Source: Thermoanaerobacterium xylanolyticum LX-11 (GTDB lineage Bacteria; Bacillota; Thermoanaerobacteria; Thermoanaerobacterales; Thermoanaerobacteraceae). Taken from it: a stretch of DNA of 64,000 nt. Below, one piece after another: positions 9,449 through 17,185 of this stretch. Under the pieces are notes generated by a model that did not search any database, was not told where the DNA came from, and saw only the letters and a program-made list of their open reading frames with translations. The stretch is taken from contig NC_015555.1 in the NCBI RefSeq assembly GCF_000189775.2, positions 1,313,001-1,377,000 on the forward strand. Reading direction: 5' to 3'. Position 1 is the first letter of the stretch. Each line of letters opens with the position of its first letter. The translations under genes and the position numbers were made by a program.

Positions 9449-12010
9449 TTAAGGATAAACTATATGTGAACCATTTTCATCTTTCGTAATCTCTATTGAG
9501 TATGGAAAACTTTCTTTAAGTTCATCAATATGCGTTATTACTAAGACTAATTCAAATTCATCTTTTATCATATTCAATACGTCAATAATATTTTGACGTC
9601 CAAGGACATCTTGAGACCCAAAGCCTTCGTCTATTATTAAGGTTTGTAAATTAACACCTGCTCTTCTTGATAAAAATTTTGACAAGGCGATTCTCAACGC
9701 AAAATTGATCCTAAAGGCTTCTCCACCGCTAAAAAGCTCGTATTTTCTTTTTCCCAACTCATCCGAAATTTCTATATCAAGCGTTTCTTGTACAGAGCCA
9801 TTTTTGTTAATTTTTTGAGTTACTAGACTTACATACATCTTTCCATCTGATAATTTAGATAAAAAATTGTTGGCAGTATCTTCAAATTCCGGCAATGCAT
9901 TTTCTATAATTAACGCTTGTATACCCTTTTTGCTAAAACTTTTCTCCAATATTTCGTAATAATGTATTTCGGATAGATAAACATCCCTTTCTTTATTTAA
10001 ATCGACAATTTTTTTCTCTAAAATTTCTAACCTATTCAGTTGGTCAACAATAGATGTTAAACTGGCATTTAGTTCCAGATATTCATTGTTAACAATATCC
10101 ATTTTTTGTTTTATTTTTTTTATGTCATCTAACAAATTATCATAACCAACAAGCTGTGATTTGAAAAACTCCAACATTTCTTTGTCTTTGTTTAGATATT
10201 CTGAATAAACTTCTATTGTCTTTTTATAACTTTGATATGTATTCTGATAATCAGATAGATTTTTTTTTGAAATACAAAGTCTTTCATATTTTTTTTCAAA
10301 GTCTCTATATAATTCATATTTATTCTTTATATTTTCATAAAGCTCAATTGAAAAGTTTAAATTTTTTAATTTAGTTTCAACATCTGACAATTTATCTTTT
10401 TCAGCAGAAGCAAAAGATTCATTTGCCAAATAATTATTAACATCGTCAATTTTTTTCTTTAATTCGTTTAGTAGATTTAATAAGCTTTCTTTTTCAGCAA
10501 TAGCATTTTTAAGTGAATCTATGTTAGCTATTAACTTTTCCCGTTTATTTTGAAGCATCAACAGATTTTCTCGTTCTTTTTTTAAAAATCTTATATTGTT
10601 TTGCTCTTTTAAAATTTCATCTTTTATTGCATATATCTTATTTGATATATCATTTATTTCTTTTTTGATATCATTCAGCAAACCGCTTTTTTTATTTTCA
10701 TCAAGCGGTGAATTACACAATGGACATTTTGCACCAGTTTGCAATATTGCTTTGTAGTTTTCTTTAAGTTCTTCCGTCTTTTTATTAAAATTGTCCAGTT
10801 GAACTTTATATTCAGCTATTTTTTGAGTAGATTTTTGAATTTCTTCATCGTTTAATTTTATTTTTTCTTGTAAATTATCAATTTCCTGTAGGCCTTTTTC
10901 CAATTCACGTAATTTTGAAACATTATTTTCTATTTCATTGTACCTTAGTAAAGTATCATTGTATTTAAATTGTAAATTCTTTAGTTCCAACTGAGTTTCT
11001 TTTCTCAATATATTTATGTTAGTTTCAATTTGGATTTTTTCTCTTTCAAGCTGATTAAAATCAGTATATTTTTTTTCAAGCTCTTTTAGCTGTTCTTTTA
11101 CAAATTTAAATGTATTATATCCTTCAAGGATTTCACTTTCATCCTTCAAAAGATTATTTACTTCATTTATTTTATTTTTCATATCCTCCATCATAATCTT
11201 GTATTCTGAGATTACTTTTTCGTTAAACTTTATTCTTTCACTATATTCATTGTATTTTATTATGTTATCATCCATGTAGCGTTTTTTTTCATCTAATTCG
11301 TTTAAATCAATGCTCAACCTGTCAATTTCGCATTTTTTTTCACTGCATTTTTTTAAAAGTTCATCTCTTTTGTAAACTAACTCATTTTTATCTTTTACTT
11401 CATTCATATACAGTTTCAATTGTTCATCTATAATATTTACCTTTTTCTCGTATTCATTGCGCTTTATTTTAGCTTTCTCCTGCAATCTATCGTATATATC
11501 TAAGCCCAGGACCTCAGAAAATATCTCCTTTCTTTTTGTCGAATCAGCCTCAGAAAAAAAGCCATACTTGTTTTGTGGCATGAAAGATGAAGCAACAAAA
11601 GTATCATAATCTAACATGATAGTGCTTTCAATTTTGTCTCTTGTATCTTCTAATCTTTCTTGAGTCAATGATTTTAATGTTCCATCATCTCCTATTATAT
11701 GAAATTCAAGGATGGAACTTGAATTTCTTTTTTTCTTTCTTAGAATTCGATATTTAGTATTATTTATTTTGAATATGAATTCTACTTCCATCTCATCAGC
11801 ACCAATTCTTATAAGATCATCACTGCCTCTACCAGCACCATCTAAACCTCTAGCTCTTCCCCAAATACACCATGTTATAGCATCCCAAAGTGATGATTTA
11901 CCATTCCCATTTTTACCTGTAATTGCAGCAATATGAAATCTTGTAAAATCCATTACTTCGTTTTCAGAATATGACATAAAATTCTTCAACGTAAGCCTTA
12001 TTGGAACCAT
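9449..12010 (-). CDS. sbcC: SbcC/Rad50-type SMC ATPase of the SbcCD nuclease
   Basis: ATPase partner of SbcD (Mre11); the complex processes DNA ends and hairpins. 853 residues. Walker A is GKNGNGKSS (about 32-40). Two long coiled-coil arms are interrupted by a zinc-hook CPLC near residue 427. The C-terminal lobe carries the signature LFSGGEAFRINFALRIALS and Walker B TLIIDEGFGSQD. The ATG follows the sbcD stop with no intervening base. Downstream lies rny with its own promoter, so sbcC closes the repair operon. At 853 residues it is on the compact, Rad50-like side for this family. Confidence 0.93.
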   Translation of the reverse strand: MVPIRLTLKNFMSYSENEVMDFTRFHIAAITGKNGNGKSSLWDAITWCIWGRARGLDGAGRGSDDLIRIGADEMEVEFIFKINNTKYRILRKKKRNSSSILEFHIIGDDGTLKSLTQERLEDTRDKIESTIMLDYDTFVASSFMPQNKYGFFSEADSTKRKEIFSEVLGLDIYDRLQEKAKIKRNEYEKKVNIIDEQLKLYMNEVKDKNELVYKRDELLKKCSEKKCEIDRLSIDLNELDEKKRYMDDNIIKYNEYSERIKFNEKVISEYKIMMEDMKNKINEVNNLLKDESEILEGYNTFKFVKEQLKELEKKYTDFNQLEREKIQIETNINILRKETQLELKNLQFKYNDTLLRYNEIENNVSKLRELEKGLQEIDNLQEKIKLNDEEIQKSTQKIAEYKVQLDNFNKKTEELKENYKAILQTGAKCPLCNSPLDENKKSGLLNDIKKEINDISNKIYAIKDEILKEQNNIRFLKKERENLLMLQNKREKLIANIDSLKNAIAEKESLLNLLNELKKKIDDVNNYLANESFASAEKDKLSDVETKLKNLNFSIELYENIKNKYELYRDFEKKYERLCISKKNLSDYQNTYQSYKKTIEVYSEYLNKDKEMLEFFKSQLVGYDNLLDDIKKIKQKMDIVNNEYLELNASLTSIVDQLNRLEILEKKIVDLNKERDVYLSEIHYYEILEKSFSKKGIQALIIENALPEFEDTANNFLSKLSDGKMYVSLVTQKINKNGSVQETLDIEISDELGKRKYELFSGGEAFRINFALRIALSKFLSRRAGVNLQTLIIDEGFGSQDVLGRQNIIDVLNMIKDEFELVLVITHIDELKESFPYSIEITKDENGSHIVYP

Positions 12011-13231
12011 TTATTTGTTCACCTCTTCTATTAGTTCTTTGTATAAGAGGGAAGCTCTTTTTAGAAGTTCATCTTTATCAACATCTAAATCAACAGACAA
12101 AAAATATTTCGATAGAGCGTCAATTGGATTAAGCTGTTCATTTATTTCAGGATTTCTTAAAGCACCTTTATCAGCATCAAATTCTTTTTTTATGCCAACA
12201 AAATAATAAGAATTTTCATTAAAATATTTGCTTATTTCTCTGTACCTGATGTGTTTATCGATATCCTTTGTGATTTTTAAGTTTAGTCTGACAATTGACT
12301 CTTTTAAATCGTATTTTTTAGCTGCTTTTAATATTTCTTCAGTAGGATAAGAATCATCTTTTATTTCGATATTGATAGTTTTAAACTGCCTGGAATTCGT
12401 AGTGATAAACTTATGTGTAACATTCTGTCCATCGATAATGACGTGACAGAAACCTTTTTCGTCTCTTTCTTCCCCAAAATCTATTTTCTCTATACTGCCA
12501 CTGTATACGGCAAGTGGCATATCCCATACTACTTGATATTTATGTATATGACCCAATGCAATGTATTTGTATTGCGGTCTAGCAATTACGCTTATTGGTA
12601 CAACAACTTCATCTCCAATCATAATGCTTTTTTCACTGCTGGTGATAGCTCCTGTTACGGATACATGAGCTGATAAAATTGATGGTATAGAAGGATCAAG
12701 TTTTGCCGTAAGAATATCAATGATAGTATTTATTTTTTCAATCATTTTTTTGTTTATCTCATTTATACTTAAATTTTTGCTTTCTTCAAGTTTCAAAAGA
12801 AAACTTTTAGGAAAATACGGAAGACACGCAACTTGCAATGGACCATTCTTAGTTTCAATAAGAAAAATATCAGGTTTGTTGGCTACATATACGTTCTTTA
12901 CATCTAAAATTTTATATATATCAAAAGCCCTTGCTTTCGAATCAGAATTTGGTTGGTCATGGTTTCCGTTGTTTATAACAACAGGAATATGTTCTGAAAG
13001 ACGTTTTATTCTTTTTGCCAGTTCTCTTTGCTGAGTAGGATTAGGTTCCCTGGATTTGTACATATCGCCTGAAATAACTGCTATGTCACAATTCTCTATA
13101 GAATAATCTACAAACCGATCAAACGCATTTAGAAAATCTTCTAATCTAGTATTTAATCCTGTTTTTTTGTTTATAATACCGTAATTCTCTATTCCAATAT
13201 GAATATCTGCTGTATGTGCAATATTTATCAT
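12011..13231 (-). CDS. sbcD: SbcD/Mre11-type DNA exonuclease
   Basis: Manganese-dependent calcineurin-fold nuclease of about 406 residues. Phosphoesterase motifs in order: HTADIHIG, ISGDMYKSREP, NNGNHDQPNSD, SAHVS and LGHIHKYQ. The C-terminal third would carry the Rad50-binding and capping regions. The ATG at 13231 is preferred over a GTG at 13240 because AGAAGGTG sits 6 bases upstream of it. It follows HerA after about 20 bases and abuts sbcC. With NurA and HerA this makes a full end-resection set. Confidence 0.93.
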   Translation of the reverse strand: MINIAHTADIHIGIENYGIINKKTGLNTRLEDFLNAFDRFVDYSIENCDIAVISGDMYKSREPNPTQQRELAKRIKRLSEHIPVVINNGNHDQPNSDSKARAFDIYKILDVKNVYVANKPDIFLIETKNGPLQVACLPYFPKSFLLKLEESKNLSINEINKKMIEKINTIIDILTAKLDPSIPSILSAHVSVTGAITSSEKSIMIGDEVVVPISVIARPQYKYIALGHIHKYQVVWDMPLAVYSGSIEKIDFGEERDEKGFCHVIIDGQNVTHKFITTNSRQFKTINIEIKDDSYPTEEILKAAKKYDLKESIVRLNLKITKDIDKHIRYREISKYFNENSYYFVGIKKEFDADKGALRNPEINEQLNPIDALSKYFLSVDLDVDKDELLKRASLLYKELIEEVNK

Positions 13232-13250
13232 TTGTTTCACCTTCTTCTAA

Positions 13251-14849
13251 TCAGTCTGGAAATAGCTCATCGATTTTTTCTTTTTCCATCAATTCTAAAA
13301 ATGGTTTATTTATAAAATCAGAATCATCGTAAGTCGAAATATCTTTATAAAATTCTTGGTCGTAGTTTCTCGTTTTAATCACAACAGGCATAGGTACAGC
13401 ATGTCCCAATATTAAAGCCTGTTGCTTTTGGTCAAGACTTGCTAATACATTTCTCAATTTCGATGCATTATTTACACCAGATAAAAACGAATTAATGTCG
13501 TTATCATCCTCTAATCGACAAGTAATCTTTGTCCCAATTTGAGACATTACCTCTGAATCAATTTGGGATGTCCTCTGGTCTACAATCAATAAAGTCACAT
13601 TGTATTTCCGCATTTCCCTTGCTATTTCTCCCATAGTAGTCTCTTTAGAAATTGAAGGATCTAAAAATCTGTGAGCTTCTTCTATTGTGATGATTAAAGG
13701 TATGGGACCTTTTCCGTTATTAGCTATAGCTTCCTCAGATTTTTTTACATACATATCATGTATATGCCTTGTTATGATATTCGCTACAAGCATATAACCC
13801 AATGTTGACACATTTCCAAATTCAACAACGACATTTATACCATTTTGCAAGTAATCCATTATTTGTTTTATACAATCGTTAGGGACAACTTCCATCAAAA
13901 AAGGAAGCTTCGTAAATCTCTCCAACTTTCTTCTTAAAGCTTGAAGAGAACTGGCATTAGCACCTATATCTAATGCATATTCATCAATTTCCGAAGCATC
14001 TATATTAAGGAAATTATACAGCCAATTGTCACCTTCCCTTTTCATTATTTGATAAATACTTTCAATTGCTGTAGTATTTAGATTCAACATGGAATTAAGC
14101 AACAAAATATCATCCGGAGTTATTTGATTGTAGGCAATGTTTAAAACGCCATCAATAGGTACCTGTCTCCTCAAAGAAGATTCTCTATCTAAAGTAAATA
14201 TTGCAACTTTACTTCCGAATAATTGCTTTAGCCCTTTTACATAGCCGCTATTTTCGCTTTTTGCACCATAACCATATTCATTATGAGCATCAAAAATAAG
14301 ACTAACTGCTAAATTTGATTTTACTAAACCAGACAACAATAACCGCGTCAAATACGTTTTTCCAGTTCCAGCTCGGCCAAAAATACCTGTGCTTCTTTCT
14401 ACTAACCTTTTTAAATTAATACAAATTGGTGTATCCATTTCAGGCGGTGTACCGATGTAAAAATTTTCTTCTGATGGTTCTCCGAAAACAGCATATATAT
14501 CTTCTTTATCTGCATCTAATGCATAAGAACCATAAGAAGGTATCGATTTTACTGTTAAAGGATTTTTGCTTTCATCTATTTGTATCATAGGTGACAATGT
14601 GACAACACCGTATACTCCTGTACCTTCTATTATTTTCTCATCTATTTCACTGTCAAAATCTGTTCCACTGATCATTATTTGAGGATTAACAGCTTCATAC
14701 TTTATATCGGTTACCATGCATAAATATTTGTTTTTCTTGCCGGTTACTACTATAAAATTGCCAACCTTAACATCTTCTATAATGCTGTCACCTATAAGTT
14801 TAACATCTAAACCAGATGAAATAGATCCTCTAAAAATTTTCCCTTTCAT
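13251..14849 (-). CDS. HerA-type hexameric DNA translocase/helicase
   Basis: 532 residues. A beta-rich N-terminal region (about 1-130) fits a HAS-barrel. The RecA-like motor has Walker A GRAGTGKT (158-165) and Walker B LIITIEEAHRFLD. A later VDQRTSQIDSEVMSQIGT stretch matches the HerA/FtsK superfamily. In archaea HerA is a DNA pump that pairs with NurA for end resection with Mre11-Rad50. Its ATG overlaps the stop of the preceding gene (ATGA), and nurA lies one gene upstream, so function with NurA is strongly implied. HerA is known from several thermophilic bacteria as well as archaea. Confidence 0.85.
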   Translation of the reverse strand: MKGKIFRGSISSGLDVKLIGDSIIEDVKVGNFIVVTGKKNKYLCMVTDIKYEAVNPQIMISGTDFDSEIDEKIIEGTGVYGVVTLSPMIQIDESKNPLTVKSIPSYGSYALDADKEDIYAVFGEPSEENFYIGTPPEMDTPICINLKRLVERSTGIFGRAGTGKTYLTRLLLSGLVKSNLAVSLIFDAHNEYGYGAKSENSGYVKGLKQLFGSKVAIFTLDRESSLRRQVPIDGVLNIAYNQITPDDILLLNSMLNLNTTAIESIYQIMKREGDNWLYNFLNIDASEIDEYALDIGANASSLQALRRKLERFTKLPFLMEVVPNDCIKQIMDYLQNGINVVVEFGNVSTLGYMLVANIITRHIHDMYVKKSEEAIANNGKGPIPLIITIEEAHRFLDPSISKETTMGEIAREMRKYNVTLLIVDQRTSQIDSEVMSQIGTKITCRLEDDNDINSFLSGVNNASKLRNVLASLDQKQQALILGHAVPMPVVIKTRNYDQEFYKDISTYDDSDFINKPFLELMEKEKIDELFPD

Positions 14850-15421
14850 ATATTACACATCCTTTTTATGGTCACATACCTGTCAAAATCATTCTTTAAC
14901 AATCTTATCAACTCTTTGCCAACTTCAATCAAATATGTTTTTTCATCAGAATCGTGAGAATATAAATTCCTTATGGCTGCTGCTATTAATTCATCTTCAA
15001 TCCCTGTTTTGCTATTTAATATATACTTTATATAATTGAGATTTTCCCTTATACATTTTAAATCACTTTCATCGCATAGATATGTAAAAGCATGTATTTT
15101 AGCTGGTTTAGGTGGAATTAATCCAATGTATCTGTCTTTTTTATATCCAATTATTTGCACTTCAAAATACGTGTGCATTAATTCAAAAATTTGTGGCTGC
15201 TGCATTTTCAACTCTTCTTCAGACAATCCAAAAGCTACTGGTTTTCTACTTTGGTCATCGCTCATTGTAGAGACATTATATACAATTCCATATATAGTTA
15301 TATCGTTTGATGTTGTTTTTACAAAACTTCCAAAATCAGGACCATCATTTAATTTTATCGATTGACACAAAAATTTCTGCGTACTGGTTTCTATGACTTC
15401 ACCTATATGATTCTGATTCAT
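14846..15421 (-). CDS. Conserved hypothetical protein between NurA and HerA
   Basis: 191 residues, no signal peptide or membrane segment. The N-terminal half is beta-strand-rich (IGEVIETSTQKFLCQS, DITIYGIVYNV) and looks like a small barrel similar to the HAS-barrel of HerA. The C-terminal half is helical with several charged segments. It overlaps nurA at its start (ATGA) and herA at its end (ATGA). Such tight coupling suggests a subunit or adaptor of the NurA-HerA complex. The barrel idea is a visual impression, not a verified domain hit; no catalytic motif is evident. Confidence 0.6.
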   Translation of the reverse strand: MNQNHIGEVIETSTQKFLCQSIKLNDGPDFGSFVKTTSNDITIYGIVYNVSTMSDDQSRKPVAFGLSEEELKMQQPQIFELMHTYFEVQIIGYKKDRYIGLIPPKPAKIHAFTYLCDESDLKCIRENLNYIKYILNSKTGIEDELIAAAIRNLYSHDSDEKTYLIEVGKELIRLLKNDFDRYVTIKRMCNI

Positions 15422-16584
15422 AGAATACTACTCCTTTTCCTTTGCGATTTATACGATCGAGATACTTTCAAGCCGCTTCTTACATATAAGTTCGAAAAAA
15501 TATTATAGAATTGTTCCCTATCTGCGCCAGTAACAACAGCTTGTTCATGTGCTTCTGACAGTGATATTGGATACCCATTTCCTTTTTTGGCTTGATCATA
15601 ACATATAAAATGAACTAAATCTAAATTTCTTCTATCGGTTGCAACCCAGTATGGAATCTCTATTCGTGCAATTTCATTTCCTGTATTTAAATAAAAAAAT
15701 GCAATTTTGTGCTGACCATAGTTTTCTAAAATATGGGATGTGCTTAGGAACAACGGAGATCTTTCTCCTTCATTAAGTATTTTCAAAAAAAGATCAGCAT
15801 CGTTTAACTTGTTTATGACACTACAAGGTAATTCTTTATCATTTTTCAAATATGGGCAATTGCTACAATTTACTGGATCTTGTGGACACAGCGATATACG
15901 CAACATATTTATAAAATCGTTGCTTTTTGGAGAACTTATATAACCGACTATAGGTGTATCAGATTTTTGTGCATAATCAAAAGTCGCAAGAACACTATCG
16001 ATTATATTCTGTTCATCAGGTTCCCCCTGTACCATCCATTCTATCAGTGTCCCATCAACGAACGCTATCTTATTTTTGCTCTTTATTTTAGAGATACATT
16101 CGGAAATTTTTTTATACTCCATTATTGTTCTCTTAAATGTTATATCCTTAGGAGTAACTAAAGCTTTAACACCTGCATATTCCTTAAATAAATCTTCTTC
16201 CTTAAAATACAGATACGGTTCAGATTTTAATTCTGCACCTGAATCTTCACCATAGGTAAATATTACATAACCTATATTTATTAAATAGCACAATCTGATT
16301 TCATGTCTATCAGGCATAATTTGTGAGCCATCCACTGCAAGTACACTGTAGTCTTTTATAATATCGCTGACAAAATTTGTGCTATTTAAACTTTCAAGCG
16401 GAATTGCAGTTAACCAAGATGTTTTGCTGGATTTTATCTTTTTTACAAGTTCATCCTCAACACCTTTAGCTTTATTAAATTCATTGATTGCATTCTTTAA
16501 ATCATTTGATATATTATTAAGCATACTTTTTTCGCTGCTTATTAATGCATTAAGCAAAGGAATCAACTTAGAACTATTTAACAA
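15418..16584 (-). CDS. NurA-domain nuclease
   Basis: About 388 residues. The NurA hallmark is present: a metal-binding aspartate in LAVDGSQIMPDRHE, a second acidic motif IAFVDGTLIEW, and a C-terminal helix-rich part with ISLSEAHEQAVVTG. NurA is a 5'-to-3' nuclease that acts with HerA. Four cysteines (C-x6-C-x2-C-x9-C) lie at 15823-15888 and could bind a metal. An ATG at 16602 lacks an SD. GAGGAGG spans the next codons and points to a TTG at 16584, one base after the recX stop. The neighbours are recX upstream and the unknown gene plus herA downstream. Confidence 0.82.
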   Translation of the reverse strand: MLNSSKLIPLLNALISSEKSMLNNISNDLKNAINEFNKAKGVEDELVKKIKSSKTSWLTAIPLESLNSTNFVSDIIKDYSVLAVDGSQIMPDRHEIRLCYLINIGYVIFTYGEDSGAELKSEPYLYFKEEDLFKEYAGVKALVTPKDITFKRTIMEYKKISECISKIKSKNKIAFVDGTLIEWMVQGEPDEQNIIDSVLATFDYAQKSDTPIVGYISSPKSNDFINMLRISLCPQDPVNCSNCPYLKNDKELPCSVINKLNDADLFLKILNEGERSPLFLSTSHILENYGQHKIAFFYLNTGNEIARIEIPYWVATDRRNLDLVHFICYDQAKKGNGYPISLSEAHEQAVVTGADREQFYNIFSNLYVRSGLKVSRSYKSQRKRSSIL

Positions 16585-16585
16585 T

Positions 16586-17185
16586 TTAATAAACCTCCTC
16601 ATCTGAGAGGACTTTATTTATATCTTCGATTTTAAATCCCTTTCTGTATAGATAATTTTTGATTTTTAACTTATCATTGGAGGAAACACTTTTTTTTCTA
16701 ATTAATTTTTGAATTACTTCTACTTCATTATCATATAGTTCACAAAGTTTAATCTCAATTAAAGAAGGTTCTATTCCCTTTCTTATAAGTTCATTGTAAA
16801 TCCTATACTTGCTGAAAAGGCGCTCTTTCTTTTCTTTTACATATACCTCTGCGTAATACTCATCATCCAAATAATGCAAATCTATAAGCTTATTTATGAC
16901 ATCACTAATTACAGAATCGCTATATCCTTTTAAGCGCAGTTTCTCACATAGCTCTTTTTTTGTTTTCATAGCATAAGATAGAATTCTAATAGCATCGTTA
17001 TATGCATTTTTAAATACCAAGTAGTTTACATAATAATTATATTGTTCTTTGTCAATTTCAACGCCGCTTTCTAACTTAAACATTTCTTTTTCTTCGTAAG
17101 AAACTGAAAAAGCGTATTTATCATCTATATAAACGTTAAATCGCATATTATCGTTTTTCTGTTTTTCTATATTTGTTATCTTCAT
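16586..17185 (-). CDS. recX: Regulatory protein RecX
   Basis: RecX binds RecA filaments and modulates their activity. 199 residues made of three-helix repeats, with typical segments ILSYAMKTKKELCEKLRLKGYS and LIDLHYLDDEYYAEVYV. AAAGGTGATTGA precedes the ATG. It follows recA after a weak terminator. The 199-residue length is between the short enterobacterial and the longer Bacillus forms. Confidence 0.92.
   Translation of the reverse strand: MKITNIEKQKNDNMRFNVYIDDKYAFSVSYEEKEMFKLESGVEIDKEQYNYYVNYLVFKNAYNDAIRILSYAMKTKKELCEKLRLKGYSDSVISDVINKLIDLHYLDDEYYAEVYVKEKKERLFSKYRIYNELIRKGIEPSLIEIKLCELYDNEVEVIQKLIRKKSVSSNDKLKIKNYLYRKGFKIEDINKVLSDEEVY

What the first reader, a model, noticed from the sequence alone, without database searches (positions are those of the whole stretch)
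14846..15421. Unknown protein wedged between NurA and HerA
It shares ATGA overlaps with both neighbours, so all three are probably made in fixed ratio. Its barrel-like N-terminus could dock onto HerA in the way the HerA HAS-barrel binds NurA. It is a candidate third subunit.
Basis: inference. Interest (0 to 1): 0.65.

Follow-up and report, generated by a model that had tools for sequence, protein, structure and literature searches.

The report
Motorless HerA-like partner of NurA-HerA
The small protein between NurA and HerA is a HerA look-alike that kept the docking barrel but has no motor, and it occurs in nearly every bacterium examined that carries this type of HerA, so it is very probably a missing third part of this DNA-break-processing machine in many bacteria.

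Summary
The ORF (14846-15421, -, 191 aa) is real and lies in nurA-[ORF]-herA-sbcD-sbcC (Thermoanaerobacterium). It is not wholly unknown: residues 6-93 match Pfam HAS-barrel above cut-off, and an AlphaFold model (pLDDT 87) matches HerA first (Z 14.4). Its first ~126 residues follow HerA's N-terminus element by element (barrel, docking helices, linker helix). Where HerA's ATPase would start it has a ~65-residue helical tail. HerA keeps its own barrel, so this is an extra, motorless HerA paralogue.

Co-occurrence is near perfect. In 398 genomes of the phylum, the same 16 hold it and this HerA lineage. Of 80 such HerA loci across phyla, 34 carry it locally and 45 of the other 46 genomes carry it elsewhere. 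In 79 cyanobacteria 34 have both and 41 neither; the one with HerA alone has a broken herA. When the operon splits, it stays with herA or nurA, or is unlinked but kept.

Best reading: a dedicated third component of a widespread bacterial NurA-HerA machine, probably an adaptor at the HerA barrel/NurA interface. Contact, stoichiometry and activity are not shown. The fixed-ratio argument does not generalise. I found no published description in the library searched.

The parts
14846..15421 (-). Third gene: stand-alone HAS-barrel protein, 191 aa (motorless HerA paralogue)
   Evidence: ORF; PF09378 36.1 bits; AF2 model pLDDT 87.1; top fold match Sso HerA Z 14.4
15143..15406 (-). HAS barrel, residues 6-93
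   Evidence: Pfam PF09378; strands 7-12, 16-21, 33-38, 41-54, 82-94 in the model
15179..15226 (-). Conserved helix pair with E-x-E-L...PQ motif, residues 66-81; same place in the barrel as the helices that precede the long fifth strand in HerA, the region reported to contact NurA in Thermococcus
   Evidence: Alignments A2, A3; DSSP of both models; PMC12977600 on the alpha1 helices of the HAS domain. The equivalence is an inference from the order of elements
14849..15073 (-). C-terminal helical part, residues 117-191 (linker helix shared with HerA, then four helices in place of the ATPase), conserved AGKEL..LL..D..RL..I
   Evidence: Alignment A3; DSSP of the model
15418..16602 (-). nurA, 394 aa
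   Evidence: PF09376 119.8 bits
15823..15888 (-). Four-cysteine motif inside NurA (CPQDPVNCSNCPYLKNDKELPC), typical of NurAs that have the third protein
13251..14849 (-). herA, 532 aa, with its own complete HAS barrel and RecA-like motor
   Evidence: PF01935 105.8 bits; AF2 model aligned from residue 1 with solved HerAs
14514..14849 (-). HAS-barrel region of HerA (residues 1-112)
15418..15421 (-). ATGA overlap nurA stop / third start
14846..14849 (-). ATGA overlap third stop / herA start
12011..13240 (-). sbcD (Mre11-like), 409 aa, next gene of the cluster
   Evidence: PF00149; same place in relatives
9449..12010 (-). sbcC (Rad50-like), 853 aa
   Evidence: PF13476, Rad50 zinc hook; same place in relatives

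Best explanation
The ORF encodes a dedicated third component of a widespread bacterial NurA-HerA DNA-end-processing machine. SHOWN by sequence and prediction: it looks like a HerA paralogue reduced to the N-terminal HAS barrel plus linker helix, with a helical tail instead of the RecA-like motor; the partner HerA keeps its own barrel, so this is an added barrel and not a replacement. SHOWN: it co-occurs almost one-to-one with one HerA lineage across many phyla, even where the genes are unlinked. INFERRED: it sits at the face where the HerA barrel ring meets the NurA dimer, with its barrel (helices 66-81) against NurA and its helical tail against HerA's barrel ring. There it would act as an adaptor that helps match a six-fold ring to a two-fold nuclease and guides the DNA that HerA pumps into NurA. 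The neighbouring SbcCD (Mre11-Rad50) would open the break first, as proposed for archaea.
For: HAS barrel by Pfam and by fold, HerA first at Z 14.4, rmsd 3.5 over 127 residues. Element order of the two models matches up to the point where the motor begins: third E7-12 E16-21 E33-38 E41-54 H68-74 H76-81 E82-94 E112-115 H118-126; HerA E2-9 E13-18 E32-36 E41-52 H56-61 H68-74 E80-91 E109-112 H115-122. HerA has its own barrel. Co-occurrence: the same 16 of 398 genomes hold third and this HerA lineage, all 16 with NurA (Fisher 7e-29, by genus 2e-12); 79 of 80 HerA loci across phyla; cyanobacteria 34 both / 41 neither / 3 third only / 1 HerA only, whose herA is interrupted (Fisher 1e-17). The gene stays beside herA when nurA moves (11 loci) and beside nurA when herA moves (17 genomes by comparing positions). 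Five-gene cluster with sbcD-sbcC in several phyla. Rates: third barrel covaries with NurA beyond HerA's motor (partial r 0.72), tail with HerA's HAS (0.52). HAS helices contact NurA in the Thermococcus complex (PMC12977600).
Against: No interaction, stoichiometry or activity was tested. Solved NurA-HerA complexes (Deinococcus, Thermococcus) work with two proteins only (PMC9960219, PMC12977600), and Clostridial type-B nurA-herA pairs have no third gene, so it is not needed in principle. Profile-profile similarity of third to HerA's N-terminus is weak, so paralogy rests on Pfam and fold. Covariation is confounded by shared phylogeny, and a control pair also gave 0.48. Three cyanobacteria have the third gene without this HerA lineage; one copy is split and one is divergent, but one is intact.
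Confidence: 0.66

Rival explanations
1. Assembly or loading factor: it binds NurA or HerA only transiently, for example holding the HerA ring open for DNA loading or presenting NurA, and is not in the working complex.
For: A barrel without a motor could mimic one HerA protomer; one-to-one co-occurrence fits a chaperone too; unlinked copies in cyanobacteria fit a non-stoichiometric role.
Against: Tight gene overlap with herA in 15 of 34 loci suggests expression close to that of the subunits, as for a structural part.
Confidence: 0.15
2. NurA guard: it caps NurA through the HerA-docking surface and blocks the nuclease until HerA displaces it.
For: The barrel copies the HerA element that docks NurA; barrel rate covaries most with NurA; the gene follows nurA in 17 genomes where herA is elsewhere.
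Against: It follows HerA just as faithfully; Deinococcus NurA alone has little activity (PMC12977600), so a guard seems less needed.
Confidence: 0.1
3. DNA-binding factor: the small barrel binds the DNA strands leaving the machine, like an OB-fold protein.
For: A barrel homologous to HAS domains in the BREX protein BrxHI was classed as a DNA-binding module (PMC12839542).
Against: The family is acidic to neutral: mean pI about 6, mean barrel charge about -3.
Confidence: 0.06
4. Operon passenger with an unrelated role.
For: None found; gene overlaps alone are common in bacteria (general knowledge).
Against: Kept in 45 of 46 genomes where it is not next to herA and absent where the HerA lineage is absent, with few exceptions.
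Confidence: 0.03

Closest known systems
HAS barrel of HerA (Pfam PF09378), e.g. Sulfolobus HerA 4d2i, Deinococcus HerA 7wrx, Thermococcus HerA-NurA 9x1m
   Same: Same barrel with the inserted helix pair, and the same linker strand and helix after it
   Different: Here the barrel is a separate protein with a helical tail and no ATPase, made beside a HerA that has its own barrel
Two-component NurA-HerA end-resection complex (archaea, Deinococcus)
   Same: NurA, HerA and, as in archaea, neighbouring Mre11-Rad50 genes (sbcD-sbcC)
   Different: A third gene is almost always present in this lineage (79 of 80 loci); NurA mostly has a four-cysteine motif
HerA-centred defence complexes (SIR2-HerA, HerA-DUF4297, TdpAB)
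   Same: A HerA-type ring working with a partner enzyme
   Different: Those are two-protein complexes with other effectors; here the setting is recA-recX and sbcD-sbcC, and PADLOC gives only generic HerA models for HerA, nothing for NurA and a chance-level hit for the third protein
F1 ATP synthase alpha/beta crown barrels
   Same: Same barrel fold (Z about 11)
   Different: No nucleotide-binding domain; matches cover the barrel only (about 75 residues)

Membership tests
HAS-barrel domain family (PF09378) | Profile match above Pfam's curated cut-off | tested here: met
   36.1 bits against 25.2, residues 6-93; 18 of 35 family members match at E 0.01
HAS-barrel domain family (PF09378) | HAS barrel fold | tested here: met
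   AF2 model pLDDT 87; HerA barrels rank first, Z 14.4
HerA helicase | RecA-like ATPase (DUF87, Walker A and B) | tested here: not met
   Only PF09378 matches; the chain ends after a helical tail
NurA-HerA complex component | Co-occurrence with nurA and herA | tested here: met
   16 of 16 in the phylum panel; 79 of 80 across phyla; NurA found in 37 of 39 genomes with copies away from herA
NurA-HerA complex component | Physical association with NurA and/or HerA | not testable with these tools
   No multimer prediction or experiment available
NurA nuclease | NurA domain | tested here: not met
   No PF09376 match for the third protein
F1 ATP synthase subunits | Nucleotide-binding domain after the barrel | tested here: not met
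   No such domain by Pfam or in the model

The most novel reading that the evidence does not exclude
A major bacterial NurA-HerA lineage, spread over at least eight phyla including Cyanobacteria and Chloroflexota, is a three-protein machine whose third, motorless HerA paralogue forms an extra barrel tier or bridge between the HerA hexamer and the NurA dimer and is needed for DNA-end processing.
Probability: 0.5. Interest if true: 0.75.

Novelty: new variant of a known kind. Interest (0 to 1): 0.62.

Why it matters
Published work treats NurA-HerA as a two-protein machine, and a 2026 paper mentions it, within bacteria, for Deinococcus-Thermus as a likely transfer from archaea (PMC12977600). Here a HerA lineage is present across Chloroflexota, Cyanobacteria, Gemmatimonadota, Latescibacterota, Armatimonadota and others, and almost never without a third, motorless barrel protein. 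If it is a subunit, it offers a direct handle on how a six-fold motor is coupled to a two-fold nuclease, and it means that reconstitutions of this lineage without it are incomplete.

Tried and rejected
Sequence search of solved structures with the single protein and with the family profile gave only chance hits, so structure was needed. HHalign of the third family with HerA's N-terminus is collinear but weak (probability 2.6%, P 0.018) and is not used as proof. I looked for gene fusions between third, nurA and herA in the loci held at that point and found none. Plasmid and phage collections hold no match, so a mobile-element or phage role is unlikely; tblastn with one sequence would miss distant copies. 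NCBIfam has no model for it. PADLOC gives only a chance hit, E 0.0036. Literature searches for a stand-alone HAS barrel or a third NurA-HerA component found nothing, but Iyer et al. 2004, the FtsK-HerA superfamily survey, is not held, so an earlier mention cannot be excluded. The rate-covariation test is suggestive only: its control pair also shows residual correlation and pairwise distances are not independent. The C-terminal helical tail was not folded and searched alone, so nothing is claimed about its fold being new.

Full report
Observation. The ORF at 14846-15421 (-) is a 191-residue frame that shares ATGA with nurA upstream and herA downstream. Pfam names the neighbours without doubt (NurA 119.8 bits; DUF87 HerA 105.8 bits). 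Further on lie sbcD and sbcC, and before nurA lie ORFs that read as recX and recA, so the setting is DNA repair. The closest named relative is Thermoanaerobacterium saccharolyticum (L089); the window is from that genus.

Identity. Pfam's HAS-barrel model matches residues 6-93 above its cut-off (36.1 against 25.2 bits), while NCBIfam has nothing. An AlphaFold model from ten relatives has mean pLDDT 87. HerA proteins fill the top of the structure search, with Sulfolobus HerA first (Z 14.4, rmsd 3.5 over 127 residues), followed by more HerAs and F1 crown barrels. A model of the window's own HerA (pLDDT 84) aligns from residue 1 with solved HerAs, so HerA keeps its own barrel. The two models run in parallel element by element: four strands, two short helices, a long strand, a short strand, a helix. 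Then HerA enters its RecA-like motor, while the third protein goes into four helices and ends. It therefore looks like a HerA paralogue without a motor. The paralogy claim rests on fold, element order and Pfam; direct profile comparison is collinear but weak.

Occurrence within the phylum. In a 61-genome panel all 23 genomes with a homologue have it between nurA and herA. Over 398 genomes of the phylum a family profile (A3) finds it in 16, and a HerA profile (A1, E 1e-60) finds this HerA lineage in the same 16; all 16 have NurA. Fisher's test gives 7e-29 by genome and 2e-12 by genus; phylogeny makes these optimistic. The two members of a sister genus in the same family that are in this panel (G010, G011) lack NurA, the HerA lineage and the third gene. 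Other Clostridia have a different, shorter NurA directly followed by a distant HerA, with no third gene; I call these type B.

Occurrence across phyla. Scanning species genomes with the HerA profile gave 80 loci from Chloroflexota, Cyanobacteria, Gemmatimonadota, Latescibacterota, Armatimonadota, Dadabacteria, Tectomicrobia, Zixibacteria and others. In 34 the third gene lies in the fetched locus. For the other 46, whole-genome searches found it elsewhere in 45 (39 of 39; six of the seven not yet located). The one miss is the genome of L145, an uncultured Coleofasciculus assembly. So 79 of 80 have it. In an independent draw of 79 genomes from the cyanobacterial phylum, 34 have both, 41 neither, 3 the third gene only and 1 HerA only (P 1e-17). 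The HerA-only genome has stop codons inside its herA. Of the three third-only genomes, one copy is split and one divergent, but one is intact.

Linkage. Among the 34 loci the third gene is within 250 nt of herA in 31, with an exact 4-nt overlap in 15. In 11 of them nurA lies 0.4-1.8 kb away, with other genes between in some cases. Where herA is elsewhere, the third gene lies beside nurA in 17 of 39 genomes (comparing positions). In cyanobacteria the third gene was neither beside nurA nor beside herA in the loci examined, apart from a Sericytochromatia genome (L198) where it follows nurA, yet it is kept. The cluster nurA-third-herA-sbcD-sbcC occurs in Thermoanaerobacterium, in a genome of family f4 (Caldicellulosiruptor-like by my reading; the panel is unnamed), in two more families of the phylum and in loci from other phyla, a bacterial counterpart of the archaeal herA-nurA-mre11-rad50 cluster.

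Mechanism. In the Thermococcus complex the HAS domains contact the NurA dimer through their alpha1 helices and preceding loops (PMC12977600). In Deinococcus each NurA touches four barrels of a six-barrel ring and the interface is acidic on HerA, basic on NurA (PMC9960219). The third protein has, at the same point in the chain, a helix pair with the family's conserved E-x-E-L...PQ motif, and the family's barrel part carries a mean net charge of about -3. Evolutionary distances among 32 linked trios show the third's barrel covarying with NurA beyond what HerA's motor explains (partial r 0.72, none of 300 permutations), and its tail covarying more with HerA's HAS (0.52) than with NurA (0.32). A control pair gave 0.48, so only the contrast is suggestive. 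From this I infer an adaptor at the barrel/NurA interface. Contact, copy number and effect on resection remain unshown. The role in end resection is itself under debate: the Thermococcus study suggests destruction of foreign DNA instead (PMC12977600).

A second feature of the lineage is a four-cysteine motif in NurA (window 15823-15888), conserved in most NurAs that have the third protein, lost in a few and absent from type-B NurAs. It suggests a metal or Fe-S site, untested.

Novelty. I found no description of this protein as a NurA-HerA component in the library; the 2004 FtsK-HerA survey that might mention stand-alone HAS barrels was not readable. I rate it a new variant of a known kind: a NurA-HerA machine with an extra, motorless HerA paralogue.

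Noticed in passing
window 15823-15888 (-), inside nurA: Four-cysteine motif (C-x6-C-x2-C-x10-C here) conserved in most NurAs of the three-gene lineage across phyla, absent in ~330-aa type-B Clostridial NurAs; looks like a Zn or Fe-S site.
   Followed up: partly
loci L065-L088: Other Clostridia carry a separate lineage of nurA (~330 aa) directly followed by a distant herA with no third gene; some genomes (G149, G256, G347) have two NurA matches.
   Followed up: partly
G513:C4:37029-38658 (cyanobacterial panel): The only cyanobacterial genome with this HerA but no third gene has an interrupted herA, as if the machine is being lost as a unit.
   Followed up: no
L095 951-1437, L096 2730-3297: A small gene pair resembling a HicB/HicA toxin-antitoxin module appears inserted between nurA and the third gene in two Latescibacterota, leaving third-herA together (name recalled, not tested).
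   Followed up: no
L028 (G005) and L024-L027, L029: Some genomes, including one of the window's genus, have an additional ~560-aa HerA with a strong HAS barrel (about 56 bits in most, 48 in L029), low-scoring against this lineage, perhaps a defence-type HerA.
   Followed up: no
L089 and L004 (T. saccharolyticum NTOU1): nurA, sbcC and sbcD are split by frameshifts in this assembly; probably sequencing errors.
   Followed up: no
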